From a virus: 64,000 bases of DNA. The notes below the pieces were generated by a model. It saw only the letters and a program-made list of their open reading frames with translations. It searched no databases and was not told where the DNA came from. This document shows, piece after piece, positions 7,657 through 29,430 of the stretch; position 1 is the stretch's first letter; each line of letters starts with the position of its first letter. The position numbers were made by a program, and so were the translations under genes. The DNA is taken from positions 1 to 64,000 of IMG/VR virus record IMGVR_UViG_3300037346_000623; one strand, written 5' to 3'.

Positions 7657-8619
7657 TTAATTTACTAAGGTTTCCTGAAATATTTTTCTTATCTTATCTT
7701 CGGGCATGAACGTGTTTACTATATTCTTAAGGTCCTTTAATTTTTTACCATCTTCAATCCTCAATTTCTTCATTTCAGAACTTAGATTCTGTTCATTACC
7801 AGATTTGTAGTTTTGAGAGGTTTGTTCGAAATGGTTATAGATATTATCCCTATCCACATTGTTATCAACGCCTAATGATTTCTTGAGTAGATAATAGAGT
7901 CTATGATTTTTCTTAACATCAGACAGATCAGATTCATCCTCAAGGTTAGGTAGATCGTCATTATAAAAATAAAAATTATGCTTACCGTTTTTACTCTTTA
8001 TCTCAACAGAGGGAGAAGATTCAGCATTATTTTTATACATCTTAAATTCACCGAGAAGCTGTTTATCTGATCTTTTATTTACATCTATTGAAATGTTATT
8101 ATCCAATACAACCGAATATTCATTATCTCCATCCAGCTTCTTAACATCAACAACCTCACAGGGAATCCCAATTATATCCATAATGTGATATACATCCTCC
8201 CTTATGGTATCTACTATATCTCCCGAATATAATTTATCTCTCATCTTGCTATCATAAAGGGATTCTATAAAATCCTCAACTTTAGCTCTATTGCTATCAG
8301 AACTTAGCCATTCGCCATCTCCTGAAATAGAAATTTTGCATGAAGAATCTGAATCATCACTAATCTTACAATGATCTTTGGGAATCCATAAATCGTTCAT
8401 TTTTCTACCTTTATAATTATGGAATGAAAGTCTAATATTTTTCGGGGAATCTTTCGTTAATAGGATTTTTCCGAATGGAGGTGTGTCATTTTCTGAATTA
8501 AATTTTTCAGCTTCCAATTCATATCCATTATCAGATAGTGAATTAATACCAGGAATTTCCTCATATATTTGTAAACTTTCCTCGTTTAAGATAAAATCTT
8601 TGAAATTTAAAATCTTCAT
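7657..8619 (-). CDS. Putative capsid-cargo protein, unknown function
   Basis: The 320-residue protein begins MKILNFKDFILNEESLQIYE. This fits the capsid-targeting segment of T4 internal proteins (short basic/hydrophobic helix with F-x-x-F, ending in a Glu after which the prohead protease cuts), here with the phage's own LNE motif at residues 11-13. If cut there, the mature protein would be packaged with DNA and injected. The rest is acidic and Ser/Asp/Asn-rich with alternating beta-strands, and no enzyme motif is visible. It lies 10 bases from the neighbouring gene at 8630-9076, which also has an INE motif, and shares its GATATATA promoter. Confidence 0.6.
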   Translation of the reverse strand: MKILNFKDFILNEESLQIYEEIPGINSLSDNGYELEAEKFNSENDTPPFGKILLTKDSPKNIRLSFHNYKGRKMNDLWIPKDHCKISDDSDSSCKISISGDGEWLSSDSNRAKVEDFIESLYDSKMRDKLYSGDIVDTIREDVYHIMDIIGIPCEVVDVKKLDGDNEYSVVLDNNISIDVNKRSDKQLLGEFKMYKNNAESSPSVEIKSKNGKHNFYFYNDDLPNLEDESDLSDVKKNHRLYYLLKKSLGVDNNVDRDNIYNHFEQTSQNYKSGNEQNLSSEMKKLRIEDGKKLKDLKNIVNTFMPEDKIRKIFQETLVN

Positions 8620-8629
8620 ATAATATCAA

Positions 8630-9076
8630 TTATGATCCGAAGACCACAGTTATTTTAAAATTTCTTGCCTCCGTTGATTTATTCATATCAATTTCAACAG
8701 ATTTAGGATATGATGGTATAAGAACATCATTCTTATCTATTAATATTTGATTATAGTCTATGGTTCTACCCGGTATTAGATCTATATCAAATTCCTTCGA
8801 ATCGTTTGGATAATCATCAACTTCGAAATCAAGTTCCATTGAATTAACAACTATATCCATGCTATCTATACCTGATTTTTTTATAATTAAATTAACCGAA
8901 TAGTCCATAAAAATCTTAGCATCGGAAATATCCTCATATTCTTCAGGCCTGTTCTGTATATCTATATCAGTATATCCAAGTTCTATTCCGAAAGTATAAT
9001 CATTTGTATTGGTTGGCTTTTTACTATCAGTAAAAGCAGAATAATCATAAATTCTTCCCTCGTTTATTCTTTTCAT
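8630..9076 (-). CDS. Putative capsid-cargo or head protein, unknown function
   Basis: I choose the ATG at 9076 (MKRINEGRIYDYSAF), giving about 148 residues. The longer frame from 9106 would begin inside the GATATATA late-promoter octamer (9096-9103), and the 19-base spacing from octamer to 9076 is identical to two other late genes. The residues RINE-GRIYDY repeat the INE processing motif and closely resemble SPINE-GRIANF in the gene at 16751-17905. The remainder is acidic and beta-rich. No known domain is recognised. Confidence 0.6.
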   Translation of the reverse strand: MKRINEGRIYDYSAFTDSKKPTNTNDYTFGIELGYTDIDIQNRPEEYEDISDAKIFMDYSVNLIIKKSGIDSMDIVVNSMELDFEVDDYPNDSKEFDIDLIPGRTIDYNQILIDKNDVLIPSYPKSVEIDMNKSTEARNFKITVVFGS

Positions 9077-9095
9077 TTCTAGAAATCTTTTAGTG

Positions 9096-9103
9096 TATAT
9101 ATC
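9096..9103 (-). promoter_or_regulatory. Late promoter octamer GATATATA
   Basis: GATATATA on the minus strand, 19 bases before the ATG at 9076. It falls inside the longer reading frame of that gene, which argues that the longer start is not used. Confidence 0.6.
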
Positions 9104-9126
9104 CATTTCGAAAAAATTACAATGTA

Positions 9127-9134
9127 AATATATA
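9127..9134 (+). promoter_or_regulatory. Possible late promoter variant AATATATA (plus strand)
   Basis: AATATATA lies 27 bases before the ATG at 9162 and is arranged back to back with the minus-strand GATATATA at 9096-9103. The same variant precedes the minus-strand genes at 48372 and 61951. Functional use is inferred. Confidence 0.35.
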
Positions 9135-9161
9135 GAGCAATCAAACTTTTAACAGTTAAAG

Positions 9162-9887: not shown

Positions 9888-9917
9888 AAAAAGAGAGCTA
9901 TACAGCTCTCTTTTTTT
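9885..9917. terminator. Bidirectional intrinsic terminator
   Basis: A perfect 7-bp stem (GAGAGCT at 9893-9899, AGCTCTC at 9904-9910) with a 4-base loop is flanked by an A-tract on the left and seven T on the right. It can stop both the plus-strand gene ending at 9887 and the minus-strand gene ending at 9935. Confidence 0.85.
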
Positions 9918-9934
9918 ATTCTATGTATATTCTA

Positions 9935-10270: not shown

Positions 10271-10280
10271 AGCTTATCTT

Positions 10281-10925
10281 TTATTTTACTATTGCTGCTG
10301 TGTTATTACCACCTAATAATCCACCCATTATATTACTAATAAATGATTCACCGTCACCTTTGGTATCGTCCGATCTAGATTTATTTCCAGAAGCCTTTGT
10401 TAGTGCATTACTAAATTGCGTTTTATCTTTACTGTTGAGCGACGATATAATATCACCACTTATATTATTCTCCCCGAATAATTCAAAAAGGAATTTTTCA
10501 ATCCTCTCCTTTCCTGTTGCTTTATCCTGTATCGTATTTACGAGGGTTCTTAATATTATACTGCTAGGTTTTAGACCAATCTCTTTCGCTATTCCATCAA
10601 ACCCCTTTCTCTCCAATGTAAATTGTATAGATTCTGCGATTTTAGGAATGAAAAAATTCATATTATTGTTGTCACCACTAAGTATACCTGGCCACTCCTT
10701 CATATCTATACTAGAAACTACTTGTTGTACAAATTCGGATGCGATGCTTTCCTCCTCTATTCCAAGCTTTTCTAAGAGTATTGCAGTAAATTTTTGTTTT
10801 ATAGTATCGATAAATCCATCTCCTAGATATCCAATCGTCTTACCGAGCAAACCCATTATATCAAAATCCTCGTGGATTTGATTGTTGTTTGAAAATGCAT
10901 CAAAGTTTTTAACTATTCTTGTCAT
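10281..10925 (-). CDS. Putative capsid-cargo protein, unknown function
   Basis: I place the start at the ATG at 10925 (MTRIVKNFDAFSNNNQIHED), giving 214 residues. The longer frame from a TTG at 10955 would run through the GATATATA octamer (10945-10952), which lies exactly 19 bases before this ATG. The N-terminus has the KNFDAF...IHE pattern of a T4-type capsid-targeting segment. The body is helical with hydrophobic faces (IMGLLGKTIGYLGDGF) and a Gly/Asn-rich end (IMGGLLGGNN). This could be a membrane-active or DNA-associated internal protein; that is inference. Confidence 0.6.
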   Translation of the reverse strand: MTRIVKNFDAFSNNNQIHEDFDIMGLLGKTIGYLGDGFIDTIKQKFTAILLEKLGIEEESIASEFVQQVVSSIDMKEWPGILSGDNNNMNFFIPKIAESIQFTLERKGFDGIAKEIGLKPSSIILRTLVNTIQDKATGKERIEKFLFELFGENNISGDIISSLNSKDKTQFSNALTKASGNKSRSDDTKGDGESFISNIMGGLLGGNNTAAIVK

Positions 10926-10944
10926 TCTTACATTTTTATTTATG

Positions 10945-10952
10945 TATATATC
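10945..10952 (-). promoter_or_regulatory. Late promoter octamer GATATATA
   Basis: Minus-strand GATATATA, 19 bases before the ATG at 10925. The octamer overlaps the in-frame upstream extension of that gene and so decides the start. Confidence 0.6.
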
Positions 10953-10976
10953 CAAGAAGTTTCAGATTAATAAAGA

Positions 10977-12383
10977 TTATGCTTTAGATAGAAATAGATC
11001 CACAGCTTTTTGTCTGTATGCTAATTTATCCTCTTTTATTTCGGGGTTCTTTAATGCCTCTTTTTTTCTATTAACTATTGAGCTAGGAAGCATAGGTCCG
11101 AATGTGTCCTTAAGTATCTTTTTATCAGTCCTCCATTCCAATGGTAAATGCATAGCAAATCTAATTATATCATTATTAAGAAATGGGGATCTTAGCTCAA
11201 GTGTATGTGCCATTGACATCTTATCCAATCTTGGCAGGTGATAAAAACTAAGCTCTTGGAAAATATCAGATTTCTGGGAATCGTATTCATGTATTCTTGA
11301 ATATCCACCAAATAACTCATCAGATCCATCCCCACTTATTACTATTCTATAATCAGTATTTTTACGGATAGTTTCAAATAAATGATACTGTGGAATAACA
11401 GATCCAAGATCTATTGGTGATTCGTTCCATTTGGCGTATATAAGAGCATTTTTTTCCAAATCCATATCATAGTCTAGGAAATTTGTAGAAGTTCCTAAAT
11501 GAGCTTCTAAATCATTAACAAAGGGGGTTTCACCATTCTCTATACTAAACCATTTAACATCAGATCCAGATTCCTTAAGTATCGCAGCAATTATAGCAGA
11601 ATCAAGTCCACCAGAAACTAGTATCGATATTGGATAATTTCTAGAAACCAATCTATTATTAACACTTTCAAACATCTTATCCCATAACCAATCCTTATGG
11701 GTTTCGTAATCCTCATCAACAAGTTCGGGTATCGGTGTGTCCCATATTCTATAATATTCAGGATAAGATTGTTCAAACATAGGAGAACCCATATTCCATG
11801 AATATATTGTATTTGGAAGTAATCTTTTTATATTGGCATATGCAGTTCTATTATCTGTATTATAACCAAACTTTCTGACAGAGCTTATGAACTTATCATC
11901 AATCTTTGAATTGTCCGTATATAATCCTTTTATTTCTGAGCATACCTCCCCAAGCTCGTTCTTATATAGGCATTTCTTACCAAGCGGATCAGTAAACGCT
12001 ATTACTTGACTTGTTACAGTACTATACAAAACTATCGACCAGAATCCATCCCATGTACAAATATGGGGAATGTACATTGCTGAGAAGAATTCCAAATTGG
12101 TCCCTCCTAATTTAGAAAAAAGATTACATAGATATTCAGTATCAGAAGAAAATAAATTCTGATCATAATTAAATATCTCACCGTTGAACATCATATAGAT
12201 ATCCTTAGCGACATTAATCGGTTGTCCCCAATCATCACCATCCAATGTTTGGATTGGTAATCTATGATGACATAGAGTTACATTATCAAAGGTCTCGCTT
12301 TGAACCTCTATTCCCCTATGTTTTATTGAATCCAGTATTTCAGGATTTGTCTTAGCACCAGTTGTTAGTAATATACCGCACAT
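10977..12383 (-). CDS. asnB: Asparagine synthetase (glutamine-hydrolysing) family protein
   Basis: The 468-residue protein starts MCGILLTTGA, so Cys2 is in place as the N-terminal nucleophile of a class II glutamine amidotransferase domain (about 1-180, with MMFNGEIFNYD near 65). The synthetase domain carries the ATP-binding PP-loop SGGLDS (257-262) and the later motif SGDGSDELFGGY. All hallmarks of converting Asp, ATP and Gln to Asn and Glu are present, although it is shorter than bacterial AsnB (about 550). It is co-transcribed with a P-loop kinase-like gene 2 bases upstream. Phage homologues may supply asparagine or amidate another substrate, and which applies here is unknown. Confidence 0.85.
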   Translation of the reverse strand: MCGILLTTGAKTNPEILDSIKHRGIEVQSETFDNVTLCHHRLPIQTLDGDDWGQPINVAKDIYMMFNGEIFNYDQNLFSSDTEYLCNLFSKLGGTNLEFFSAMYIPHICTWDGFWSIVLYSTVTSQVIAFTDPLGKKCLYKNELGEVCSEIKGLYTDNSKIDDKFISSVRKFGYNTDNRTAYANIKRLLPNTIYSWNMGSPMFEQSYPEYYRIWDTPIPELVDEDYETHKDWLWDKMFESVNNRLVSRNYPISILVSGGLDSAIIAAILKESGSDVKWFSIENGETPFVNDLEAHLGTSTNFLDYDMDLEKNALIYAKWNESPIDLGSVIPQYHLFETIRKNTDYRIVISGDGSDELFGGYSRIHEYDSQKSDIFQELSFYHLPRLDKMSMAHTLELRSPFLNNDIIRFAMHLPLEWRTDKKILKDTFGPMLPSSIVNRKKEALKNPEIKEDKLAYRQKAVDLFLSKA

Positions 12384-12385
12384 AA

Positions 12386-12943: not shown

Positions 12944-12992
12944 AAATATTATAGATGTGGGAAATAATTTAATTTCGACCCTATAAAATTAC

Positions 12993-13049: not shown

Positions 13050-15575
13050 TTACTTTACCTCAATACACTTGAATGGAGATTTTTGTGGGAAATCTTTAAA
13101 TTCAACAGTATTCATTCTTTTACATAGCTCAGAAACTGCTGGATATATTGTTTTTGTAATCCTTCTAAGATTTAGAATAACTACACCCTTAGATGCCATC
13201 ATTCCAGTAGCTGGTTTGAATTTAATCAGAGGGGTAAAGGAAGAAAGAGCTTTTTGCTCAGTAAATCCATCATTATTTTTTTTATTTAATATTGCTGTTA
13301 TTTCTATTCTTTTTGGATTAATTAGAGTATCCTTGCTAAATGTTATCAATTCTCCATCACTAGCTTCATCCTTCATTAATCTATCATCCGCTACCCTCTG
13401 ACAAACATCTTCAGTTAGAATATTATCAGAAATCCATTTAATACAAGGAATATATTTTTTATTATCAGCATCATACGTTACGCAATTGGATATTGAAGCT
13501 AGAAGAGTATTCAATAATACAAATTCATATGATCCCATATCAGGATCAGAAGAATCAACATCTAATGCAATCTCGAATGCCCTTTTTACGTCACCCTTCA
13601 TAATTTCCATTGATATAAAAGGAACTTCCTTATTGGTTAAAATACTTTGTATCCTATTTGCTATATTTTTAAATTTACCCTTCTCTGAAAGTACGCCAGC
13701 AAATTTACTTAGAGAATCATACCTTTTTTTATGATTAATATAACCAAGGGTAGAAAATTGTAATGCATTATTTTTAAAGAAGAGATAGACGTCGTCCTTT
13801 TCATCAACCTTCTCAAATTTTGGCCAGTTCGAAGGGGATTTTAATGACGTATCCTTTCTATTTATTCTATACAAACCACCATCATTAAAAAAGTATCCAT
13901 AATCGTTAGGAGAAGTAGTTACATCTTCTAATGCTTTCATCCAAGCTTTTATAAACTTGGAATTATATGAGGGCTTAAGAGACCCATCAGTTCTAGTAAA
14001 GTTTGTTCCCTCCACATCGATCTTATAAACACTTCTAAGCTTTTCTGCAAGTTTATTGGCATCCACTGATTTTGATTCCATTGACTCTGAATCTTCGTCC
14101 TCCTCACCTTCCTTCGATGTAGATTTACCCTTGGCCTGCGAAAGTGGTTCACTTGATGTTGTTTCGTTGTATTGGGAAGCAAGTTCCTTCTCAAAATCAT
14201 CATTGTTAATAGTAATCTTATTATTTTCATTTATTCCAGATTCTTTAATAAAATCGGTAAATGAAAAAACAGTCGATATACTTTCGTTCATTTTAACTTT
14301 AGCAACATCAAGTGCTTTATGTATTATTTTTTTATTCTCATCGGAAACCCAATCAGAGGCAAGTATATCAGAAAGCAATGCCTGGTCGATTTCTCCATTA
14401 ACATTCTTATTCTTCTCCATCTTCTGTATCGTCGCGATAACAGATTTTGTAGCTGGACCATATTTACCATTAGGCCCACCTTTAGATTTTATCAATTTAC
14501 TGGCTGCTGGTATACCATCACAAAGAGCTTTTTGTATTGCGAATATTAATCCGCTATCTTTGAATTTATCATCAGCATCAGTATTACCTCTACTTATAGG
14601 AAATAAAGTTTTATTAAAAACTTCCTCCTTCTCTTTGTGCTCGTCCTTTATAGTAACAAGAGCTGTTGAATATTGCGAATCCGCTCTAGTTTTTAATAAT
14701 TTAGCCTCGTCACAAAGTGTATTTACATCACCGTAAGCTCCATTAAGTTCCTCGTCATTCTGTATATTAGTAAGAGATTTATCTATTGCAGCATTTGAAG
14801 CTTTAATATACTCCAATCTATACTTATCAACCTGTTTTTCAAGATCATCTAAAGCCTTCTTATCTTTCTCGCCAAATGCACCCTTAGAAGTATCTAAAGA
14901 TTTTCTTTTCTCGTCAAGATCAACAAAAGTCGTCTGCCAATCTCTTCCATATCCGTTCTTGGATGTTTTTCCATTAGACGAAAGTATAAGATTCGCTAAT
15001 ATTTTTCTAAGATCGTCGACTCTACCTTTATACCCAGTAAATATACCATCCTCGTTTAGCATATCTAATTCGCCATTAAAATAGTAGGACTCAGCAATTC
15101 CATTTTTTGAATCGTTCTCCTCCTTAGCAGATTTTGCAAGTTGTTCAGTTCTTCTTTGTTTAACCTGAGCACCAGCTTTCATATAATCAAGTACGAACTT
15201 CTCGTTTGCCTTGTTTACTTTACATGCGCTTACTAAAGCTTCAGTATATTTCTCGAGTGCCTGTAAATATAAATTTTTTGACTCCGCATATGCTGAGGTT
15301 TTAACCCCGCTTTCAGCCGAATCGTTTCTAAGTACAGCAACTAAAGATTCTATTGTATTCGCAGAAATTATAGGTGATAGTTTTTCTCTACTACCCTCAG
15401 GATTTCTTTCTCTCGATGGTGCGATATCAAAAACAACCTTCTGATAAATATCAAGACAAGCATCAGAGATTGTTCTTAATACGTTATCAGCAGCCTCGTT
15501 TTCAAATAGTTTTTCAGATATACTATTTTCGTACATCGCTCTAGCTACTGGATTATTTTTTAAATATTGATTCAT
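13050..15575 (-). CDS. Large putative internal head protein with peptidoglycan-binding-like segment
   Basis: The 841-residue protein is mostly helical and highly charged. Residues about 350-400 (KGGPNGKYGPATKSVIATIQ and following) match the core of PG_binding_1 domains, where a GPxTxxAV-x-x-FQ helix follows a Gly-rich turn. At about 430 the segment FSFTDFIKESGINE repeats the F-x-x-F ... [LIV]NE pattern found at the N-termini of cargo proteins, so the prohead protease may split the protein there. The acidic Ser/Glu stretch near 480-500 looks like a linker. No lysozyme motif is visible. Its neighbours are other cargo-like proteins, which favours a virion location. Confidence 0.55.
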   Translation of the reverse strand: MNQYLKNNPVARAMYENSISEKLFENEAADNVLRTISDACLDIYQKVVFDIAPSRERNPEGSREKLSPIISANTIESLVAVLRNDSAESGVKTSAYAESKNLYLQALEKYTEALVSACKVNKANEKFVLDYMKAGAQVKQRRTEQLAKSAKEENDSKNGIAESYYFNGELDMLNEDGIFTGYKGRVDDLRKILANLILSSNGKTSKNGYGRDWQTTFVDLDEKRKSLDTSKGAFGEKDKKALDDLEKQVDKYRLEYIKASNAAIDKSLTNIQNDEELNGAYGDVNTLCDEAKLLKTRADSQYSTALVTIKDEHKEKEEVFNKTLFPISRGNTDADDKFKDSGLIFAIQKALCDGIPAASKLIKSKGGPNGKYGPATKSVIATIQKMEKNKNVNGEIDQALLSDILASDWVSDENKKIIHKALDVAKVKMNESISTVFSFTDFIKESGINENNKITINNDDFEKELASQYNETTSSEPLSQAKGKSTSKEGEEDEDSESMESKSVDANKLAEKLRSVYKIDVEGTNFTRTDGSLKPSYNSKFIKAWMKALEDVTTSPNDYGYFFNDGGLYRINRKDTSLKSPSNWPKFEKVDEKDDVYLFFKNNALQFSTLGYINHKKRYDSLSKFAGVLSEKGKFKNIANRIQSILTNKEVPFISMEIMKGDVKRAFEIALDVDSSDPDMGSYEFVLLNTLLASISNCVTYDADNKKYIPCIKWISDNILTEDVCQRVADDRLMKDEASDGELITFSKDTLINPKRIEITAILNKKNNDGFTEQKALSSFTPLIKFKPATGMMASKGVVILNLRRITKTIYPAVSELCKRMNTVEFKDFPQKSPFKCIEVK

Positions 15576-15587: not shown

Positions 15588-15848
15588 TTATGTTGCAGTA
15601 GGTGTAGCTACCGTTTTTGGTTGTTTTTTAATTTCAGAAGAAAGAGCTTTCATTGTATTAGATATCTTAATATGAATTGCTGCTTGTTGATTTAGACTTG
15701 CTGCTTCAGAAGCAGGATCACCCTCCTTTTTAATAGATTTTGCATCGGTTAGCTCGTCATGATTTTGAGATAATTGCAATCTTAATTGCTGTACCTTTGT
15801 TGCCTCCGATTCCTCTTCAAGCAATCTAAAAGAATTAAATGTTATCAT
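15588..15848 (-). CDS. Small putative capsid-cargo protein
   Basis: The 86-residue protein starts MITFNSFRLLEEESEATKVQ: a short F-x-x-F segment and a Leu-x-Glu site, as in T4 capsid-targeting sequences. The rest is a Gln/Ala/Ser-rich helix (coiled-coil-like) ending in a Thr/Ala/Val/Pro tail. Its ATG overlaps the stop of the gene at 15845-16747 by 4 bases (ATGA), indicating translational coupling. The function is unknown. Confidence 0.55.
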   Translation of the reverse strand: MITFNSFRLLEEESEATKVQQLRLQLSQNHDELTDAKSIKKEGDPASEAASLNQQAAIHIKISNTMKALSSEIKKQPKTVATPTAT

Positions 15849-16750: not shown

Positions 16751-17905
16751 TTATTTATTTATTTTTTGTTTTAGCTTATCTATGATACCTGTTGTCAATA
16801 TACCAGATTTACCTATACCTACTGTTGAAAATGCATCTCTAAATGCTTTTAATACATCGCCTTTTATTTGTTTAGCATTACCTGCACCTTTATTGATCTT
16901 ATCTATGGCATCCTTAAATTCTTTATTATTACCAAGGGATTTCTCAATTTCAGCTGCATTACTACCAAGATTTCTAAAAGTTGAAAGAAGTTCCTTTTTA
17001 TAATCAAGAGCAGTTGCCATTTCTATAAGATCAAGCTTGGCATTTTCTAAGTATCTTTCAGTTAGTGGCTTAGTGGATTTCTTTATCTTATTGGAAATTT
17101 GATTTAGTTTTCTCTCCATATCAGATTTAATATCAGCTATTTCTTTTTCAAGCTCATTTTTTCTTTTAATTATATCCCCGCCTTTTCTTCTAGCTATAAT
17201 CTTCTTCTCCTTTTCTGTATCAAACGAAACCTCAGTTTTTACCTCATTAGGTTCCTTATCCCCTTCCTTCTTCATTTGTTCCTCTATCTCCTTAGCTTTA
17301 GCTTCTGCTTCTTCTCTGGCTTTAGTAACTTTCTCCTCATAGGATTTTAATGCTGTCTGATCCTCAGATCTTTCTTTTGCTAATCTGTATTCAAGCTCAG
17401 CCATTTCTATTTCATTCTCAGCATAACAAGAATCAAGATATTCCTTTCTCCTAGAATTTCCATTAACTATCTGCTTTGCAACATCCCTTGCTTTTTTAAG
17501 CTTAAGGTTCTGTGCTTTCTCGTATGCATCAAACTCATTGGTTTTAGCCTCCCTCTCCTTAGCTATTGCATCGATTTTTTCTTTATTACCTGCTTTTGCT
17601 AATTGATCTATCTGTTCATCGAATTTGGATAGGTTTTTTCTTAAATCACTAGCTTTCTGTATAAGATCAAGTTCCAGCGAAAGAACTATTCTTACCGCTT
17701 CGTCTATCATACCAACACCAGAAAATGATCCGAGAAGGAACTTGGAGAGTTTATTCGTTAAAAAATTGGCTATTCTTCCTTCGTTTATAGGAGATATTAT
17801 TTCTGGGATTTCGATTGATCTTAATTCTTTAAGAAATGCTGGGTCGAGATTCTCTATCAAACCTTCATATTGTTCAAAATCCTCAAAAGATGGAATACTT
17901 TTCAT
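16751..17905 (-). CDS. Putative capsid-cargo protein, long coiled coil; paralogue of 15845-16747
   Basis: I choose the ATG at 17905 (MKSIPSFEDFEQYEGLIENL), which lies 22 bases after the GATATATA octamer. The ATG at 17926 is only one base from the octamer and would precede the expected transcript start. The protein has about 384 residues. The N-terminal F-x-x-F segment is followed by a processing-type site SPINE-GRIANF (about 37-47), almost the same as RINE-GRIYDY at 9076. Then come a hydrophobic helix (LSKFLLGSFSGVGMIDEAV) and long Lys/Glu coiled coils. The role is unknown. Confidence 0.6.
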   Translation of the reverse strand: MKSIPSFEDFEQYEGLIENLDPAFLKELRSIEIPEIISPINEGRIANFLTNKLSKFLLGSFSGVGMIDEAVRIVLSLELDLIQKASDLRKNLSKFDEQIDQLAKAGNKEKIDAIAKEREAKTNEFDAYEKAQNLKLKKARDVAKQIVNGNSRRKEYLDSCYAENEIEMAELEYRLAKERSEDQTALKSYEEKVTKAREEAEAKAKEIEEQMKKEGDKEPNEVKTEVSFDTEKEKKIIARRKGGDIIKRKNELEKEIADIKSDMERKLNQISNKIKKSTKPLTERYLENAKLDLIEMATALDYKKELLSTFRNLGSNAAEIEKSLGNNKEFKDAIDKINKGAGNAKQIKGDVLKAFRDAFSTVGIGKSGILTTGIIDKLKQKINK

Positions 17906-17927
17906 AAATTGATTTATTTTTATCATC

Positions 17928-19810: not shown

Positions 19811-21535
19811 TTATGCTAAACCACCAGCAGGTACATTAACATAAAATGTCAAGTACATAGTTTCAGGTAAGAAACCAGCTTCTACTAAAGCGTATCTAGA
19901 TTTTACTGCTATTTTAGGTGACATAGTACCCTCAGAGATTGTCTGGATAGACTCCGCCATCATATAAGGCATGAATTTTAGTCCCGGTTCGTCATCACCA
20001 CCTTTTCTACCAATTAATACTCTCGTATCTGAATAGTTCATATTCTGATCAACATAAACAGTCATACCTGCAAGAGAACCTACTGGATATAATGTACCGT
20101 TGTTTTGAGTTAATGTGTTAGAGAAAGGTGCGAATGTGAACTGAGAGATGTCCTGAAGTGCACTTGCTACTGCAGCGTTAGTAACGATGAAGTTAGCAGG
20201 ACCTCTTCTACCTCTATTAGCTACTACGTTTGCAGCTGCAAGAATTCTAGAGAATAATCTTCTTTGAAGAGTTGATAAGTTCTCAAATCCACCTGATGCA
20301 GGACCATTAGGAATTGGCATAACAACACCAGCATTAGATTTATTTACATATGCAGCAGTATTACCAGCATTTGTACTGTTTATAACTAAATTCAAGTTTA
20401 AGTTCTGTTGTTCAACATTGTTAAATTGAACGTGGTTAGACCAACCTAAAGCAAATGCTCTTGATAAGATGTGCTTGTTAATAGCTTGAGAAACCTCATT
20501 AACCAATGCGTTCTCGATCATTGATATAACGTCGATACCGAATTGTTTGTTAAGATCTTGGATTTGCTCTGTTGTAACAGAAGCAGCTACTTGGAATGTC
20601 TCAGCTTCAACGAATTTAGTGAAAGTCGAAAGACCCATTGAGTTGAAGTAAGTAGACTCACCAACTCCTCTTAACATAGGATCGTAAGTTTTAGTACCAT
20701 CAACATAAGGACCTTGCCAGTCACTAGTGTTATTAAAACCAGCACCAGAGAAACCTTGGATGTGATCTTCTAAGGCTTTAACTAATTGAGCAGCATAACC
20801 ATTTGGTGAATAAGTAGCACCAGTTGATAAAGCAGGACCAGCAATAGCAAAGTTAGTAAGTGCGGTTGGTGTACCATTAATAATTGTATTAATGTTTGTT
20901 CCAGCAGCAATACCTGTTACTTCAAATATTGGGAAACCGTCAATTCTAGAAAGACCTACAAATGTTAATTGTAATGTACCAATATTACCTGTAGCACCAA
21001 CTGTTGGGAATGAAGCTGCAGTAGCACCAGTAGCACCAGTAGCACCAGATCCAGTATAAACTGGGAATTTAATCATTGTTGGAGCAGTAGCTAACTGATC
21101 AGCAGCTGTAGTAGCAGCACCAGCACCTAATTTACCACCAGCATAAACATAATCTAAGTAAGATAAGATACCTGTAGGACCTGACATAGGAATAACTGGA
21201 ACGATATCAAAACCGATTGTTTTTGCAGCAACCTGAATTGCTAAAGGTAATAAAGATGGGAATTTATCTCCAGATCCTTGGTTACCTGTGTTATAGAAAC
21301 CTGCATTAGCATTACCACCTTGGAATGAAGCCATTCCTGGATAAGCTGGGGGAGCAACGCTACCCATACCATTAACAACACCTAAAGAGTTATAAGCTCC
21401 AGCAGATTCGTTTAATGAGTGATAGTGGCAATATTTAGTTAACCACCCTTTTTTTCCTTCATCTGTGATACCAGCTTTACTTTCAATAAGTGGTGACCAT
21501 GTATCGTAGATTTCTTGTTCGTTAATCAATTTCAT
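19811..21535 (-). CDS. 23: Major capsid protein (T4 gp23-like)
   Basis: The 574-residue protein is the hexamer-forming shell protein. The start MKLINEQEIYDTWSPLIESK resembles the N-terminal delta segment of T4 gp23. The segment AKTIGFDIVPVIPMSGPTG (about 104-122), followed by YLDYVYAGGKL, is the family's most conserved stretch. A processing site of the form HSLNE-SAGAYNS ends at Glu43, close in position to the gp21 cleavage site in T4 gp23 and matching the LNE motif used elsewhere here. A Gly/Ala/Thr-rich loop (GATGATGATAA) marks an insertion near 165. It follows the protease-scaffold gene by 17 bases and ends at a strong terminator. Confidence 0.95.
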   Translation of the reverse strand: MKLINEQEIYDTWSPLIESKAGITDEGKKGWLTKYCHYHSLNESAGAYNSLGVVNGMGSVAPPAYPGMASFQGGNANAGFYNTGNQGSGDKFPSLLPLAIQVAAKTIGFDIVPVIPMSGPTGILSYLDYVYAGGKLGAGAATTAADQLATAPTMIKFPVYTGSGATGATGATAASFPTVGATGNIGTLQLTFVGLSRIDGFPIFEVTGIAAGTNINTIINGTPTALTNFAIAGPALSTGATYSPNGYAAQLVKALEDHIQGFSGAGFNNTSDWQGPYVDGTKTYDPMLRGVGESTYFNSMGLSTFTKFVEAETFQVAASVTTEQIQDLNKQFGIDVISMIENALVNEVSQAINKHILSRAFALGWSNHVQFNNVEQQNLNLNLVINSTNAGNTAAYVNKSNAGVVMPIPNGPASGGFENLSTLQRRLFSRILAAANVVANRGRRGPANFIVTNAAVASALQDISQFTFAPFSNTLTQNNGTLYPVGSLAGMTVYVDQNMNYSDTRVLIGRKGGDDEPGLKFMPYMMAESIQTISEGTMSPKIAVKSRYALVEAGFLPETMYLTFYVNVPAGGLA

Positions 21536-21552: not shown

Positions 21553-23514
21553 TTATCTTGTTTGAAATTTTTTCTCTAATGCAGAAGCAATAGCATTCAT
21601 ATATTCGCTAGAATATCCTTGTGGTTGCTTTTGTGCATTAGGCATTGCGATATTTTCGCTCTCGTCTAATTTTTGAACTCCAACAGTAGCAGCTCCAAGT
21701 TGACGTGTTGACCAGAAGTTTTTTACCTGGTAAGGTGTATCTAATAAATAGAAGTTACTCTGAGCAATAATAGATTGCTTGTGTCCCTCGCTAAGTGATT
21801 CCCAAACTTGAGTGTATTCTTCAGGCATTGTGTCAATAAAATTAAGACCTGTTTTGTTTTTGTTCTCATTTTCATTAAGAACTTCATCTGCCTTTTGTGT
21901 GTTGGCTGTTTGCTTCATTGACGCAGAAGCTTCGTTTATATTTGATTCAGTTTTTTGTGTTTTAACTGATTCTATCAAACTGTCTATTCTTGTTGTAAGA
22001 TCTGTATAATCTCCAGCGAATCCTGATTCGTTTAATCCAGCTGAAGCTGAGAGATCCACATTTTCTCTTAATGAATCTGTAGCTTTGTATTTGGTTGTGT
22101 TAACTGTTTCAGCTATATATTCTGTATAAGAGATTGATTTTTTTAATTTTTCTGCTAGGTAATCAGAATAATCTAGACCTTTATTAGCATTTTCTGCTAA
22201 ATAATCTGAATATTGTATATTCTTATTAAGACCTTCAGCAATGTATTCTGAATACTCTATGCCATCATTTAATTTTTCTGCTAGATATTCAGAATAAGCT
22301 ATACCTTTATCTAAGTTCTCACCAAGATATTCAGAATAAGAAATTCCTTTATCTAAGTTTTCTGCTAGATATTCAGAATATTGGATATTCTGATCTAATT
22401 TCTCAGCAAGATATTTTGTATATTCTATTCCTTTGTCTGTTGATTCAGCAACATATTCGGTATAGGAAATTCCTTTATCCACATTTTCTGCTAAGTATTT
22501 AGAATAAGAAATATTTTTATCTAAATTTTCAGCAAGATATTTACTGTAGCTTATACTTTCGTCTAAGTTTTCAGCTAAATATTCACCATATTTAATAGCA
22601 TTATCTAAATTCTCAGCTAAATATTCTGAGTATTTTTCTAGTTTAGCAACTCTTTCTTCAAGGCTTGAATTTTTATCTTCAAAGCTAGATTCTGTTAATA
22701 CTTGCTTTTGTTCTTTAATTTCTGCAATTTTAGAATTCATAGATTCCATTTCTTTTTTCAAGAAAACAGAATATTGATTTAATTCTTCTGCAGTCACAAA
22801 TTCATTATTCTCCATGAGGATCGTCTTATTTTTATCTGATTTTGATACGAGGTTGTTAAATTCTTCGTTATTTTCAACTTTATATATCTTCACTGCTGAA
22901 TCATCTTTTAGACCTAACGATTCATTTACACAGAGAAGATCGTTGGTAACACTTTTATTTCTCATTTCGAAGAAATCAGCAAAATGATAACCAGCGCTTT
23001 CATATACTCTTTCTAATTGTGCATCCTGAAAACCAGGATCTGCAACTAGATCGTAAGTGAATATTTTTTTTATTTGAACTTTCTTATCACTGCCAACAGA
23101 ACCAGCAGCTCTTGAAGAAATTGAAAGAGGAACACCTGCATCAACAAGATTTTTAGCTATCTGCCCCATTGGTGTATCCAAAAGTCTAACTTTGATCTTA
23201 ATTTCTCTTCCGCCTTTATCATAATCAAGCTTTTCTATTATATGGGAAATATTCTTAAGCGAAACATCAAACTTTTCAGGGTGATCTAATTCGCCAACTA
23301 ATCTTCTCTGAGCTATTTTCTCATTAAGATAGTTTAAGTGTGGAAGGTATTCGGCTTCTTCGTAAATTCTATTGTTGTTGTTCTCTTTACCGAAAACAGC
23401 AGCAGTACCTTCTAAGACATAATCATTGTTATCAGTCTTTGATGATTCAAGAACCGATGATTGTCTCTCGAGGATGAAGACCAATTCTTCGTTTAAATTT
23501 TTGGTTGTTGGCAT
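21553..23514 (-). CDS. 21: Prohead protease fused to repeat-rich scaffold (gp21-gp22 fusion)
   Basis: Numbered from the ATG at 23523 (656 residues). I prefer the fourth residue, ATG 23514, which lies 23 bases after GATATATA. The protease part (about 1-180) has the S77-type motifs LVGELDHPEKF (catalytic His81) and PLSISSRAAGSV (catalytic Ser near 136). After residue 200 comes a helical scaffold with thirteen 14-residue repeats (298-477) of the form YSEYLAENLDKGIS. Candidate self-cleavage sites of type [LV]NE lie at about 201, 499, 531 and 551. In T4 these are two genes, gp21 and gp22; here they form one polypeptide, immediately upstream of the capsid gene. Confidence 0.9.
   Translation of the reverse strand: MPTTKNLNEELVFILERQSSVLESSKTDNNDYVLEGTAAVFGKENNNNRIYEEAEYLPHLNYLNEKIAQRRLVGELDHPEKFDVSLKNISHIIEKLDYDKGGREIKIKVRLLDTPMGQIAKNLVDAGVPLSISSRAAGSVGSDKKVQIKKIFTYDLVADPGFQDAQLERVYESAGYHFADFFEMRNKSVTNDLLCVNESLGLKDDSAVKIYKVENNEEFNNLVSKSDKNKTILMENNEFVTAEELNQYSVFLKKEMESMNSKIAEIKEQKQVLTESSFEDKNSSLEERVAKLEKYSEYLAENLDNAIKYGEYLAENLDESISYSKYLAENLDKNISYSKYLAENVDKGISYTEYVAESTDKGIEYTKYLAEKLDQNIQYSEYLAENLDKGISYSEYLGENLDKGIAYSEYLAEKLNDGIEYSEYIAEGLNKNIQYSDYLAENANKGLDYSDYLAEKLKKSISYTEYIAETVNTTKYKATDSLRENVDLSASAGLNESGFAGDYTDLTTRIDSLIESVKTQKTESNINEASASMKQTANTQKADEVLNENENKNKTGLNFIDTMPEEYTQVWESLSEGHKQSIIAQSNFYLLDTPYQVKNFWSTRQLGAATVGVQKLDESENIAMPNAQKQPQGYSSEYMNAIASALEKKFQTR
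22087..22632 (-). repeat. 42-bp/14-residue tandem repeats in the scaffold region
   Basis: Thirteen consecutive units encode variants of Y-[ST]-x-Y-[LIV]-[AG]-E-x-[LVA]-x-x-x-[IL]-x. The protein period is exact but nucleotide copies are diverged, so this is an old, selected repeat rather than a fresh expansion. Nearly every unit holds the tripeptide L/I/V-A-E. Confidence 0.9.
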
Positions 23515-23537
23515 TTTATACATATTTTTATGTTACT

Positions 23538-23582: not shown

Positions 23583-26360
23583 TTATTGAAATTTTATTCT
23601 ATCTTCCACTTCTTTAGCGAATTTTTTAGCGATTTGGAATGCTTCACCATCACGAACTTCATAGGTTTTTGCTGTATTAAACATAGGTGCATACCTATTT
23701 TTAAGTTTAACCTTTATAACTTCACCTTGTCCATTCATGAATGTTTTAGCAAGTGTTACTGCTTTCCATGTAGGTATTCCAAGAACTTCCTTTTCTTTAT
23801 CAGTAAGGAATTCATCAACTATGTTTATACCACCCTTAAAGTTTTTATCTCTTATAACCGTAGCATTTTTTCTGTTTTTAATACTGATATCATCAGGATC
23901 CGCAGTAATGAAATAATCATCCTTGTTCGGTGTATTTTCATCGTCACTATCATCTACATCAGAATTCACATTATCATCATTCTTATTATCTTCAGGCTTT
24001 GTTTTTCTTACGATCTTACCACTATTATCTTCCTTCTTAACCTCCTCCTTGAATTCATAGACACCTCTTCTAGGATCTATAAGAGTCTCGTTCGTACTTA
24101 CTCCAACCTCTATACTGGATCCTAAATTAGCATCATAATCATCCGGATCTATAATAAAATATTTATAAGCTGCAGGAGTATATTGTCTATCCTCTGGATT
24201 TGCATACTCCATATCGGTTACAGAATAAACTGCAACTTTGGCTGGCCCTGATGCCTCCTCATTAGTTAAACTCAATGTATCTTCTGATTTATCGGATTTA
24301 ACATTGGCTTCTGTTCCTTCCTCTTTCTCATCCTCGTTTAATGTTGAATAATCAGGATATTTACCAGTAATGTCTATATACTCAAGAACATCCTCAAATT
24401 CAGCAAATTTATGTATAACCGTTCCATTTTTAGAAGATTCTTTTATCATTGGTGTTAACCAAAGTTCTCTATTATTTTCCGAATCGTTCACACCAGTTCC
24501 ACTAGGTTGTTTCTTATTTTTCTTCTCTTCTGACTTATCTTTTATATTTTTATTTTCTCCTCCTTTTTCTTTCTTTTCTGGTTTTAAGTTGTTTATCTTA
24601 TTGTTTCCACTTGCAAACATCTCCGCTATATCATCACTAGATTTTGATCCAAGTTCTTCGTCGGTAAGAAGTTTACCTGAAACATTCACATAATCTTTCT
24701 GCGTGGTTCGATAATAATATTCATATGTTTCTGGTGCATTGTTATCGGATATTATATACTGATCGAGAGCTTCGTTATAGTATTCAAGCAAAACTGACCA
24801 GTCACATATACCCATGAAATTAAAGCTAGTAGCTATATCTTCTGGCTGATCAACATAAGCTACCTTAACATCCATATCCTCATTATCTAGAACCCTTCTT
24901 AATCCAGAAAGCCCACTCTGAGCATTTATTGGTCCATTCTTTATAGAGATCAATGTAACAGCATGATCAGAAAGACCCTTCTGATATTCCTTGGAGTTTA
25001 TAGAAGTTAATATAAATATCGAATCACCGCTATTACCCTTACCTACCTTAAATAACTCAGCAGTTGTTCTTGTATCATTACTATAGAGGAAGCTTGCAGC
25101 TATACCTAGACCTGTACCAGCGGGTTGTTTCCAGCATATTGTTATTGAAGTACCATCCTTTATCTTTCCCGGATCGAATTCCTTTCCTCCTTTGCCAGAT
25201 GAGATTGTATCCTCTATCTCATCCCATTTAGGTGCCTGGTTATCGCTAAACCAATTCCATGTTGATCCTATAGCATCAATAGCTAATAGTGCTTGTCCTA
25301 CAAAAGGAACTAATCTAGCACCACCCTGGGAGACACCTCTACTTAATCCAGTTCTGAATGCAGTTACTATCTTAGGTAGAGAAGATTTACCCAAAATAGC
25401 AGCTTTACCTGCTCCCTTTACACCTCTGATTATAGATTTACCAACAACTACTGTATCTTTAAATTTAAGAACGTCTACTAAGCCACTTCCTAGGACTTTT
25501 ACTTTTTTAATCCCGCCAGATGCAACGTTCTTAAGAAACTGTCCGGATTTTGCAAGGAGACCTGTAGCTTTAGCACCTCCAGTCGCAACGGTAGCTGCTG
25601 GTGCAAGACCTCTTATTGATTTTAAAGCTATTCCTGCAGCAACACCATATCCAACACTTCTTAATACCGCCCACGTTACACCTATACCAGCTCCAATAGC
25701 TGCATATTCACCTGCGGTTTTTAGTATGCCTTCAACTAATTCTTTCATTGTAGTATCAGGGTCAACTGGTCCTCCAGGGAGTGATTCCTTAATTGAAATA
25801 ACTTTAACCTTAGAATCATCAGATCCAGGAAGAGCAACCAGCTTAAATGCTTTGAGCGTCTCGTCAACATTTATTTTTGTTTCAGAATCCTCCATACTAA
25901 CAAATACAGCTTTTTCTTCACCAGTAGGTAAATCTACATCCACTGAATTTATATTCTTTAGTTTACCGTCAGCTTTAAGCTTATTGTAAGCATAATGAAA
26001 TTTTATACCGATTTTAGCTTCAGCTGATATTGTCTCGTCTGCTTCATTTAAACTATCATACTCATCAAAAGATAAAACATCGGATTCACTCAAATTGTTA
26101 CCAAATCTATAGGATTCTACATTTTCCTTTATGATATCAGTCAAGCTGTTTCCGTATCTACTAGTTTCTTCAGAATCAGCAACCCATTGTCTTTTATTAG
26201 CATTCATCCATTTTTTAAACTCCGAAGATTCTGCCCACCATTGAAAATCATCAAATGTTTTTTCCTCCGGATTTAATTCAGAAATATCAGTGGGTATGCT
26301 TATCATAGGGAAATCATCCCCAATATTATATTTCCCATTTTTGGGTAAAAATATATTCAT
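23583..26360 (-). CDS. Large putative internal head protein with hydrophobic Gly/Ala core
   Basis: The 925-residue protein has three parts. Residues 1-115 include VLSFDEYDSLNEADE, which repeats the cargo-type F-x-x-Y...LNE processing motif, so cleavage near 112 is likely. Residues about 210-360 form a long Gly/Ala/Val-rich, basic and hydrophobic region (YAAIGAGIGVTWAVLRSVGY, then IRGLAPAATVATGG), which looks membrane-inserting or pore-like. The C-terminal half is acidic, with a Lys/Glu-rich linker and a final basic beta-domain. It lies just before the protease gene. A role in genome ejection is possible but inferred only from composition. Confidence 0.5.
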   Translation of the reverse strand: MNIFLPKNGKYNIGDDFPMISIPTDISELNPEEKTFDDFQWWAESSEFKKWMNANKRQWVADSEETSRYGNSLTDIIKENVESYRFGNNLSESDVLSFDEYDSLNEADETISAEAKIGIKFHYAYNKLKADGKLKNINSVDVDLPTGEEKAVFVSMEDSETKINVDETLKAFKLVALPGSDDSKVKVISIKESLPGGPVDPDTTMKELVEGILKTAGEYAAIGAGIGVTWAVLRSVGYGVAAGIALKSIRGLAPAATVATGGAKATGLLAKSGQFLKNVASGGIKKVKVLGSGLVDVLKFKDTVVVGKSIIRGVKGAGKAAILGKSSLPKIVTAFRTGLSRGVSQGGARLVPFVGQALLAIDAIGSTWNWFSDNQAPKWDEIEDTISSGKGGKEFDPGKIKDGTSITICWKQPAGTGLGIAASFLYSNDTRTTAELFKVGKGNSGDSIFILTSINSKEYQKGLSDHAVTLISIKNGPINAQSGLSGLRRVLDNEDMDVKVAYVDQPEDIATSFNFMGICDWSVLLEYYNEALDQYIISDNNAPETYEYYYRTTQKDYVNVSGKLLTDEELGSKSSDDIAEMFASGNNKINNLKPEKKEKGGENKNIKDKSEEKKNKKQPSGTGVNDSENNRELWLTPMIKESSKNGTVIHKFAEFEDVLEYIDITGKYPDYSTLNEDEKEEGTEANVKSDKSEDTLSLTNEEASGPAKVAVYSVTDMEYANPEDRQYTPAAYKYFIIDPDDYDANLGSSIEVGVSTNETLIDPRRGVYEFKEEVKKEDNSGKIVRKTKPEDNKNDDNVNSDVDDSDDENTPNKDDYFITADPDDISIKNRKNATVIRDKNFKGGINIVDEFLTDKEKEVLGIPTWKAVTLAKTFMNGQGEVIKVKLKNRYAPMFNTAKTYEVRDGEAFQIAKKFAKEVEDRIKFQ

Positions 26361-26382
26361 AATATAAATTATTTTTTTTCAA

Positions 26383-27198: not shown

Positions 27199-27202
27199 AA
27201 AA

Positions 27203-27235
27203 AAAGCTTTCCTCTATATATCAAAGGAAAGCTTT
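27203..27235 (-). terminator. Intrinsic terminator with a promoter in its loop
   Basis: A perfect 11-bp stem (AAAGCTTTCCT at 27203-27213, AGGAAAGCTTT at 27225-27235) ends on a T-run towards the minus-strand downstream gene. The 11-base loop contains TATATATC, which is GATATATA on the transcribed strand. Confidence 0.8.
27215..27222 (-). promoter_or_regulatory. Late promoter octamer GATATATA inside terminator loop
   Basis: Minus-strand GATATATA, 16 bases before the GTG at 27198. Transcripts starting here would lack the first arm of the hairpin and escape the terminator. Confidence 0.55.
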
Positions 27236-27253
27236 AAAGTATTTACTAATATT

Positions 27254-27952: not shown

Positions 27953-27966
27953 AATTATATTTTATG

Positions 27967-27974
27967 CAAATATA
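27967..27974 (-). promoter_or_regulatory. Host-type -7 box TATATTTG
   Basis: TATATTTG on the minus strand, 14 bases before the ATG at 27952, fits the Bacteroidota TAnnTTTG element. No clear TTG -33 box is visible upstream. Confidence 0.45.
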
Positions 27975-27987
27975 ATAAAAAAATTCG

Positions 27988-28023
27988 AATAAATAAAATT
28001 ATTTCTTCGAAATTTTATTTATT
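27988..28023 (-). terminator. Possible AT-only terminator hairpin
   Basis: A perfect 13-bp inverted repeat (AATAAATAAAATT at 27988-28000, AATTTTATTTATT at 28011-28023) spans the stop codon of the UvdE-like gene. It has no GC pairs, so its strength as a terminator is doubtful. Confidence 0.4.
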
Positions 28024-28904
28024 ACAGTCGGAGGAAGACCTCTATGTGATTTTAAATATTCAAGATAACAAAGTTCTCTATCCGGTGAATCTATTATAAC
28101 ATCAATGTCGAGTCCAAAAGTTGGGATTCTCATTGTTAATACACCAGTACAATTAGGTGAAAGAGCTTTACCGTTATTATCAGCGTCGGCTGCTTCTGAA
28201 TGGAAGAAAAAAGGTTTTGTACTTACTCTCCATGTTGAGGCTGCAAGAAACATAGCCTCCCTTATGGATAATCCGCCGTCGTTAAACTGATGTGGTAATA
28301 TTCTAAAACATAACGGTATTCCGGTTTCGTAATAAACACCAGATAATAGATCAGTTATCGAAAAAAGACTGGGCTTCTCGTCATTCATGACTGTTAATCT
28401 TTGCACTGTCGACTTTTTAAGTTTAGCCACCATTAAACAAAATTCCTTCATTGTTTTCTTTCTGTTTCCGTAAGCTGATCCTATTCTTATAACCATCGAA
28501 GGTCCATTCATACCAATTACACCAAGAACATCGGAGAGCTTATTAAGTAGCTTTATAGTTTTTATTCTAATATCCTCAAGTTGGCTACCAAGAAAATAAT
28601 CCTTACCTATAAAGATGATAACTCTCATCGAGTTTTTATTTATCAATGAATTTATATTATTGATTTTTTCGGAGAGAAGCGGATTCTCCTCCTCTATAAA
28701 ACCAGGCTCAAGGAAATCTGGGGTTATATCTAGCTCGCCAAGATTTAAGCAAACTATATTGGATGATATTTTAGAATTTATTATACATAAAGCCAAAATA
28801 AGATCGAGGATATCCTCATATGAGCATATCCTCTTATCTATTGTTATTGATTTCTTGGGAATACCAAGATACGATATATTTGTTTGATTGTGTCCGGATA
28901 TCAT
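27999..28904 (-). CDS. UvdE/UvsE-family TIM-barrel protein with degenerate active site
   Basis: The 301-residue protein follows the UV damage endonuclease family over most of its length: VIRIGSAYGNRKKTMKEF (138-155), RLTVMNDEKPSLFSITDLL, GIPLCFRILPHQF (195-207), EAMFLAASTW, and IDVIIDSPDRE near the end. The metal-binding residues of true UvsE enzymes are mostly replaced: His to Arg140 in the IHxGG strand, Glu to Met173 in the LEND strand, Asp to Arg201 and the first His to Pro204 in the VDxxHH strand. His235 is kept. The fold is probably preserved but incision activity is doubtful. It belongs to the repair block beside the DEDDy exonuclease. Confidence 0.7.
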   Translation of the reverse strand: MISGHNQTNISYLGIPKKSITIDKRICSYEDILDLILALCIINSKISSNIVCLNLGELDITPDFLEPGFIEEENPLLSEKINNINSLINKNSMRVIIFIGKDYFLGSQLEDIRIKTIKLLNKLSDVLGVIGMNGPSMVIRIGSAYGNRKKTMKEFCLMVAKLKKSTVQRLTVMNDEKPSLFSITDLLSGVYYETGIPLCFRILPHQFNDGGLSIREAMFLAASTWRVSTKPFFFHSEAADADNNGKALSPNCTGVLTMRIPTFGLDIDVIIDSPDRELCYLEYLKSHRGLPPTVINKISKK

Positions 28905-28950
28905 CTATAGAGTTTCTTATTTGTACTATAAATGATTGAATTGGTTTCTC

Positions 28951-29430
28951 CTAATTGTTTGTTTCCTGTCCTAATTCACTAGCACTATAGACAGTTTTTG
29001 AATTATACATAGACCCAGGTAGCTCACTTGCTTTGCTTTTCGATATGGTTTCCATATTCCCATGATTACCACCCTCTGCAAATTTTATACAATCTGATTT
29101 TATTTCTATTATCTTTTTGTTTTTCCTACCTTTAATATAGGATTGTATAAAATATCTATACTGTTTATTATCTGGATTTCTAAAGCATCTAACTATAACA
29201 CCTATAACCTTTTTCTTAGAATCGATAGGTTGAGACTCTACAACATCTCCTATTTGAAATTCAGAACCCTTTACTGTTCTATCGATGTTTGGATCCGGAC
29301 CAACTGATACTGAGAGATCATCGAATGGTTTATAGTTAACCTTCATAACACCATTACCACTTCCAAGACCATAGGTATCGCCAAATATTCCGCCATCAAG
29401 ATATTCGTTTATGTTCTTAATATATTTCAT
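28951..29430 (-). CDS. Small protein with SH3/KOW-like segment
   Basis: The 159-residue protein starts MKYIKNINEYLDGGIFGDTY, with an INE site at residues 7-9 like the cargo proteins. The middle (GSEFQIGDVVESQPIDSKKK, then VIGVIVRCF) looks like an SH3-type or KOW barrel. The end is Ser/Asn-rich. It lies 15 bases after the UVR-motif gene and 46 bases before the UvdE-like gene. No function can be assigned. Confidence 0.5.
   Translation of the reverse strand: MKYIKNINEYLDGGIFGDTYGLGSGNGVMKVNYKPFDDLSVSVGPDPNIDRTVKGSEFQIGDVVESQPIDSKKKVIGVIVRCFRNPDNKQYRYFIQSYIKGRKNKKIIEIKSDCIKFAEGGNHGNMETISKSKASELPGSMYNSKTVYSASELGQETNN

What the first reader, a model, noticed from the sequence alone, without database searches (positions are those of the whole stretch)
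7657..29430. A processing code [LIV]-N-E and a family of capsid-targeted cargo proteins
LNE or INE occurs at the capsid delta site (Glu43), at several sites in the protease-scaffold fusion and near the start of at least five small proteins (7657, 8630, 15845, 16751, 28951 genes), often after an F-x-x-F helix. Internal copies occur in two large proteins (13050-15575, 23583-26360). This parallels the T4 capsid-targeting segment cut by gp21, but with a different tripeptide. The cargo proteins would be injected with the DNA.
Basis: partly seen in the sequence, partly recalled or inferred. Interest (0 to 1): 0.8.

Follow-up and report, generated by a model that had tools for sequence, protein, structure and literature searches.

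The report
Capsid-targeting tags in a huge phage
This giant T4-like phage, and relatives up to the 735-kb phage LR756501, attach a short cleavable address label to dozens of unrelated proteins, very probably so that they are packed into the virus head and cut free by the enzyme that trims the shell; the principle is known from phage T4, but the scale is new and makes a list of possible injected proteins readable from sequence.

Summary
In the window, [LIV]NE lies in the first 30 residues of 10 genes (1.8 expected). In four huge relatives, 16 to 32 N-termini match aromatic-x-x-aromatic-[LIVM]-x-E, the geometry of T4's capsid-targeting sequence (YQEFIAE); shuffles give 2 to 4. In the two nearest relatives the tagged proteins are mutually unrelated and synonymous codons vary. 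In four head-cluster proteins the predicted P1 glutamate is the most conserved Glu: 13050 E175/E450, 23583 E106/E676, 15845 E13, 16751 E49; neighbouring enzymes show no such effect. Capsid site SLNE|S is invariant in 79 relatives. The protease is a T4 gp21 homologue by family and fold, fused to a 13-repeat helical scaffold whose repeat, YSEYLAE, has the tag's pattern. Corrections: Asn is preferred, not required, so the site is ordinary gp21-type L/I-x-E; gene 8630 is not a member, 28951 is undecided; 10281 and 15588 were missed. Cleavage, packaging and injection are inferred, not shown.

The parts
21407..21535 (-). Capsid (gp23-like) delta propeptide, residues 1-43, predicted cut SLNE43|SAGAY
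   Evidence: Pfam Gp23 1.7e-41; SLNE|SAGAY invariant in 79 relatives
22954..23466 (-). Prohead protease domain (about residues 20-190), gp21/S77 type, with conserved GELDHP and ISSR motifs
   Evidence: Peptidase_S77 32.1 bits over cutoff 27; phrog_207 9.6e-39; AlphaFold model matches T4 gp21 5jbl, E 6.9e-6
22093..22638 (-). Scaffold helix: 13 tandem 14-residue repeats (ISYSEYLAENLDKG), residues 296-477, each a candidate L-x-E site and each matching the tag pattern
   Evidence: continuous helix 285-474 in a low-confidence model
8581..8619 (-). N-terminal capsid-targeting tag of the 7657-8619 protein, MKILNFKDFILNE13|E
   Evidence: F-x-x-[FY] then [LIV]xE kept in nearly all orthologs down to 22% identity
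16709..16747 (-). Tag of the 15845-16747 protein, MTLKFKDWDQINE13|A
   Evidence: E13 100%, F5 98%, W8 93% in 55 orthologs; most conserved Glu
15816..15848 (-). Tag of the 15588-15848 protein, MITFNSFRLLE11|E (missed by reader)
   Evidence: [LIV]xE in 96% of orthologs, P2 N/S/L/G/Q/F
10869..10925 (-). Tag of the 10281 protein, M11TRIVKNFDAFSNNNQIHE29|D (missed by reader; ATG at residue 11 of the listed ORF is the likely start)
   Evidence: Site in 77% of orthologs, P2 mostly N
17780..17926 (-). Long propeptide of the 16751-17926 protein, PSFEDF...ISPINE49|G
   Evidence: E49 100% in 48 orthologs, most conserved of 49 Glu
26043..26069 (-). Internal site 1 of the 23583-26360 protein, FDEYDSLNE106|A
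   Evidence: E106 98%, F98 94%, [FY]101 100%; lies at the end of a low-confidence linker 59-109
24333..24407 (-). Internal site 2 of the 23583-26360 protein, FAEF...STLNE676|D
   Evidence: E676 98%, F652 and F655 96%; in linker 584-695
15051..15059 (-). Internal site LNE175|D of the 13050-15575 protein
   Evidence: E175 100%, most conserved of 64 Glu
14226..14252 (-). Internal site F-I-K-E-S-G-INE450|N of the 13050-15575 protein
   Evidence: E450 100% with P2 N/F/M/Y
15501..15509 (-). Possible N-terminal site LFE25|N of the 13050-15575 protein
   Evidence: [LIV]xE in 91% of orthologs

Best explanation
A gp21-type prohead protease (21553-23523) is made as a fusion to its own helical scaffold. 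Cargo proteins carry an amphipathic N-terminal tag (M-x-x-I-x-x-[FY]-x-x-[FWY]-[ILV]-x-E) that docks them into the scaffold core during prohead assembly. On maturation the protease cuts after Glu of [LI]-x-E, P2 preferably Asn: this removes the capsid delta segment, dismantles the scaffold (a candidate site every 14 residues), trims the tags and splits two large head-cluster proteins at linkers. Freed cargo stays with the DNA and is presumably injected. Shown by sequence: tag family, site conservation, protease homology, scaffold repeats. Inferred: docking partner, cleavage, packaging, injection.
For: Strict T4-geometry tag in 17, 16, 25 and 32 N-termini of four huge relatives versus 3.3, 2.1, 3.7 and 3.0 in shuffles; T4 control recovers IPII and IPIII; Lak-A2, PTm1 and PAU show none above chance with the same script. 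Genes picked by the aromatic half alone (MxxIxxFxxF) are followed by [LIVM]NE in 16/55 versus 8/569 others (p 6e-13), 15/45 versus 7/454, 15/55 versus 17/575. In G001 and G003 the tagged proteins show no similarity to each other behind the tag, and codons vary. P1 Glu is the most conserved Glu in four head proteins, unlike [LIVM]xE sites in neighbouring enzymes. Delta site invariant. Protease fold = gp21 5jbl. In the 23583 model both sites fall in or at the edge of low-confidence linkers between folded parts. Some tagged proteins are peptidoglycan enzymes or host-acting types: L,D-transpeptidase/Tlde1, SLT, PG_binding, RimK, DUF2201.
Against: No virion proteomics for any phage of this group. 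Many genes with the aromatic half lack a following [LIV]xE, and an idea that these use an earlier L-F-E failed. Some tagged proteins (adenylate kinase, PPK2, radical SAM) are unusual head cargo. In LR756500 the scaffold repeat often lacks the Glu. Protease-scaffold model confidence is low (mean pLDDT 49).
Confidence: 0.83

Rival explanations
1. Only the head-cluster proteins are protease substrates; the dispersed N-terminal tags are another signal, for example docking to an intracellular phage structure or membrane, that happens to resemble the T4 tag.
For: Tags occur on metabolic enzymes such as adenylate kinase and PPK2; not every tag has a complete [LIV]xE.
Against: Dispersed tags share geometry with the head-cluster tags (7657, 10281, 15588, 15845), with T4 internal proteins and with the protease sites; the aromatic half and the [LIV]NE half are strongly linked.
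Confidence: 0.11
2. The motif is a by-product of composition (L, I, N, E and F rich proteins) and the reader picked out chance matches.
For: [LIV]NE is common: about 22 expected in the window; some listed sites (8630, 15845 E190/E258, 21553 E68) are indeed chance.
Against: Shuffle controls, position bias, ortholog conservation and negative-control phages.
Confidence: 0.02
3. The shared start is a DNA or RNA-level signal (translation initiation or regulatory) rather than a peptide signal.
For: It sits at the start of the coding sequence.
Against: Synonymous codons vary at conserved positions in G001 and G003; the same aromatic-pair-plus-[LIV]xE pattern recurs internally in 23583.
Confidence: 0.02

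Closest known systems
T4 capsid targeting sequence (CTS) of internal proteins IPI-III and Alt
   Same: Short N-terminal propeptide, aromatic pair three residues apart then [LI]-x-E, on otherwise unrelated proteins; T4 residues 4 and 7 target, 8 and 10 are needed for processing (PMC9026906; PMC3012670).
   Different: Tag starts three residues later (aromatics mostly at 7 and 10); P2 mostly Asn rather than Ala; dozens of cargo genes scattered over the genome instead of a handful.
T4 gp21 / Pfam Peptidase_S77 prohead protease
   Same: Family match, fold match to 5jbl, L/I-x-E sites in gp23-like shell and scaffold.
   Different: Fused in one chain with a repeat scaffold (T4 gp21 and gp22 are separate). 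A fused 'prohead core scaffolding protein and protease' is already annotated in Tenacibaculum phage PTm1.
phiKZ/SPN3US/201phi2-1 head maturation
   Same: Diverged gp21 relative; many head and inner-body proteins cut after x-x-E; often long propeptides (PMC5694885).
   Different: P3 is A/S/G there, L/I/V here; no aromatic tag is described for them in the papers read.
Sphingomonas phage PAU N-terminal start MKT[LI]xxL[YF]E
   Same: 20 genes share an N-terminus ending in [LIVM]-[YF]-E, as expected of a tag for a gp21-type protease.
   Different: No aromatic pair, P2 aromatic; no earlier description found.

Membership tests
T4-type CTS cargo proteins | 10-19 residue N-terminal propeptide ending in [LI]-x-E | tested here: met
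   Most tags end at residue 10-20 in this clade and relatives; 16751 is longer (49)
T4-type CTS cargo proteins | Aromatic targeting residues three apart (T4 Y4, F7) | tested here: met
   [FYW]xx[FWYH] directly before [LIVM]xE, strongly over shuffles
T4-type CTS cargo proteins | Same tag on unrelated mature proteins | tested here: met
   No similarity among mature parts in G001 and G003; LR756500 has some paralogues
T4-type CTS cargo proteins | Tag removed by the prohead protease; protein packaged and ejected | not testable with these tools
   Needs virion proteomics or tag-reporter fusions
gp21/S77 prohead protease | Sequence family membership and catalytic-region motifs | tested here: met
   Peptidase_S77 above gathering score; GELDHP and ISSR columns invariant in 26 relatives
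gp21/S77 prohead protease | gp21 fold | tested here: met
   Foldseek best three hits are 5jbl chains, E 7e-6 to 2e-5, probability 1.00, from a modest-confidence model
gp21/S77 prohead protease | Cleavage after L/I-x-E | tested here: inconclusive
   Conserved candidate sites fit; no cleavage data
phiKZ-type [SAG]-x-E protease system | Small residue at P3 | tested here: not met
   P3 is L/I/V at the conserved sites
   P2 is N/F/L/Y/S/D/T/Q in orthologs of the same site; N in 11 of 25 tags of LR756500

The most novel reading that the evidence does not exclude
The capsid-targeting tag is a one-unit mimic of the scaffold's own 14-residue repeat (YSEYLAE), so any gene can become cargo by acquiring about a dozen residues; the largest phages use this to load tens of different enzymes into each head, and scaffold disassembly, shell maturation and cargo release are one reaction.
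Probability: 0.35. Interest if true: 0.82.

Novelty: new variant of a known kind. Interest (0 to 1): 0.64.

Why it matters
If right, the probable head cargo of the largest known T4-like phages, which are uncultured, can be read from sequence: tens of candidates per genome, most without a known domain, some with peptidoglycan, ATP-grasp, kinase or peptidase domains. It gives a concrete candidate for what the T4-type tag recognises, a scaffold repeat, and offers a way to find proteins that act at the first moment of infection.

Tried and rejected
(1) Strict [LIV]-N-E code: rejected, P2 varies. (2) 8630 as a cargo protein: rejected, its INE lies at the edge of a misplaced start and is absent from orthologs. 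(3) 15845 E190/E258 and 21553 E68: not conserved. (4) The idea that tags without a downstream site use an earlier L-F-E (mutual exclusion): not significant. (5) A DNA-level signal: rejected by codon variation. (6) Same tag in Lak-A2, PTm1 and PAU: not above chance. (7) The five LNE sites of the 38978-41539 protein: too few orthologs, no clear pattern. (8) Function of the 23583 protein by fold search: nothing significant in PDB or BFVD. (9) Literature search for this tag in huge phages: nothing found in the open-access library; subscription papers are not held.

Full report
What the window is. The window is part of a 117,265-base IMG/VR virus record from a huge T4-like phage. The capsid gene 19811-21535 is Pfam Gp23 (1.7e-41) and 21553-23523 matches Peptidase_S77 and the PHROG head maturation protease. 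Relatives in named collections are the Lak phages, the 462-735 kb uncultured phages LR756500-LR756504 and LR745206, Tenacibaculum PTm1 and Sphingomonas PAU. Eighty IMG/VR loci carry close capsid genes. One relative, a 430-kb contig with a 96% identical capsid protein, here called G001, was read in full, together with G003 (373 kb), LR756500, Lak-A2, PTm1, PAU and T4, and the first 390 kb of LR756501.

Chance. Over 61 window genes [LIV]NE occurs 37 times (21.6 in shuffles), and 10 genes have it in the first 30 residues (1.8 expected). In G001 37 genes have it in the first 25 residues (12.7 expected) and the count peaks at residues 11-20.

The tag. I then dropped Asn and used only the geometry of the T4 IPIII signal, [FYW]xx[FWYH][LIVM]xE. 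T4 itself returns IPII and IPIII. G001 gives 17 N-termini (3.3 in shuffles), G003 16 (2.1), LR756500 25 (3.7), LR756501 32 (3.0); Lak-A2, PTm1 and PAU give no excess. Typical starts are MENILNFNSFINE|N, MNRIKDFSAFINE|D, MKYIKEYEDFINE|A and MIKKYIQFINE|A. Selecting genes by the aromatic half alone (MxxIxxFxxF) yields 55, 45 and 55 genes (11.5, 7.3, 13.4 in shuffles), and these are followed by [LIVM]NE far more often than other genes (p 6e-13, 2e-12, 4e-9), so the two halves belong together. In G001 and G003 the tagged proteins show no similarity to one another behind the tag, and synonymous codons vary: it is a peptide signal carried by unrelated proteins.

Site by site. With about 50 orthologs each, the predicted P1 Glu is the most conserved Glu of the protein at 13050 E175 and E450, 23583 E106 and E676, 15845 E13 and 16751 E49, usually inside poorly alignable sequence. 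In 23583 each site is preceded by a conserved F-x-x-[FY] (F98/Y101, F652/F655), and in the predicted structure the sites fall in, or at the edge of, low-confidence linkers between folded parts. As a control, [LIVM]xE glutamates in neighbouring enzymes are no more conserved than their other glutamates. The 7657 protein keeps the aromatic pair and an [LIV]xE in nearly all orthologs down to 22% identity. The 8630 site fails. 28951 keeps I-[N/Y]-E at residue 9 but lacks the aromatic pair; I leave it open.

P2. Asn is favoured but not needed: at 23583 E106 P2 is F, L, N or Y; at 13050 E450 N, F, M or Y; in LR756500 11 of 25 strict tags have N and 5 have L. T4 gp21 cuts after L/I-X-E (PMC9026906). 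The specificity is therefore of the gp21 type with a lineage preference at P2, not a new tripeptide.

Protease and scaffold. The AlphaFold model of the fusion has modest confidence in the protease domain, but its three best PDB matches are the chains of T4 gp21 (5jbl, E 7e-6 to 2e-5). The second half is a long helix of 13 repeats of 14 residues, ISYSEYLAENLDKG; all 13 L/I/V-x-E sites are kept in 50 relatives. The repeat matches the tag pattern that was defined beforehand from T4: aromatic, x, acidic or K, aromatic, L/I/V, x, E. The same repeat scaffold occurs in LR756502, LR745206 and LR756501, in a weaker form with the Glu often lost in LR756500. This suggests, but does not prove, that the tag is a mimic of one scaffold repeat.

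Mechanism. Shown by sequence: tag family, site conservation, protease homology, repeat scaffold. Inferred: tags dock cargo into the core; the protease, activated in the prohead, cuts the delta segment, the scaffold array, the tags and the linkers of the two large proteins; cargo is left with the DNA and enters the cell. For T4 the tag's targeting and processing were shown by experiment (PMC9026906) and T-even internal proteins are described as diverse proteins sharing only the CTS (PMC3012670).

Cargo. Of 40 tagged proteins from four phages tested against Pfam, most have no match. The others include L,D-transpeptidase/Tlde1 (just below the curated cutoff), RimK ATP-grasp, adenylate kinase, SLT transglycosylase, PG_binding_1, OmpA, DUF5661, leucine-rich repeats, a DUF2201 metallopeptidase/VWA protein, PPK2 and a radical SAM protein. 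A tag in front of adenylate kinase and of RimK is conserved between G001 and G003.

Novelty. CTS tags and gp21 are known. New, as far as the open-access library shows, are the scale (tens of cargo genes per genome, in phages up to 735 kb), the two-part signal with its scaffold counterpart, the polyprotein-like sites in two large head-cluster proteins, and a different tag-like start in PAU. Reviews of jumbo phages read here mention S77 proteases and phiKZ-type cleavage; the passages found do not mention such a tag.

Noticed in passing
window 34571-36211 and 36216-37829: Two tandem gp20-like portal genes, about 50% identical to each other; both have separate orthologs in G003.
   Followed up: partly
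window 17959-19698: A 579-aa endonuclease-like gene sits between the capsid gene and the 16751 gene; in G001 these two genes are only about 120 bases apart, so this looks like a mobile insertion. It has a 76% identical DNA stretch in LR756504.
   Followed up: partly
Sphingomonas phage PAU, e.g. 100248-114543 (W04): 20 genes start with MKT[LI]xxL[YF]E, often followed by KLNE: a different tag-like start, several copies next to the protease and capsid genes.
   Followed up: partly
LR756500 (L151, L160, L161, L167, L168): A family of tagged leucine-rich-repeat proteins in several copies with the same MKYIxxYxxF start.
   Followed up: no
window 46300-46857: Deaminase-like protein with an extra N-terminal stretch, TSFINE here and TSFITE in G001; the G003 ORF lacks it.
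   Followed up: no
window 38978-41539: 853-aa protein with five [LIV]NE sites; the KINE356 site is also INE in the distant Lak-A2 homologue.
   Followed up: no
window 8630-9106: Start codon is probably misplaced by the longest-ORF rule; orthologs begin at M-x-R-I-Y-D-Y.
   Followed up: yes
window 10977-12383: Asparagine-synthetase-like gene inside the head gene cluster, present in over 40 relatives.
   Followed up: no
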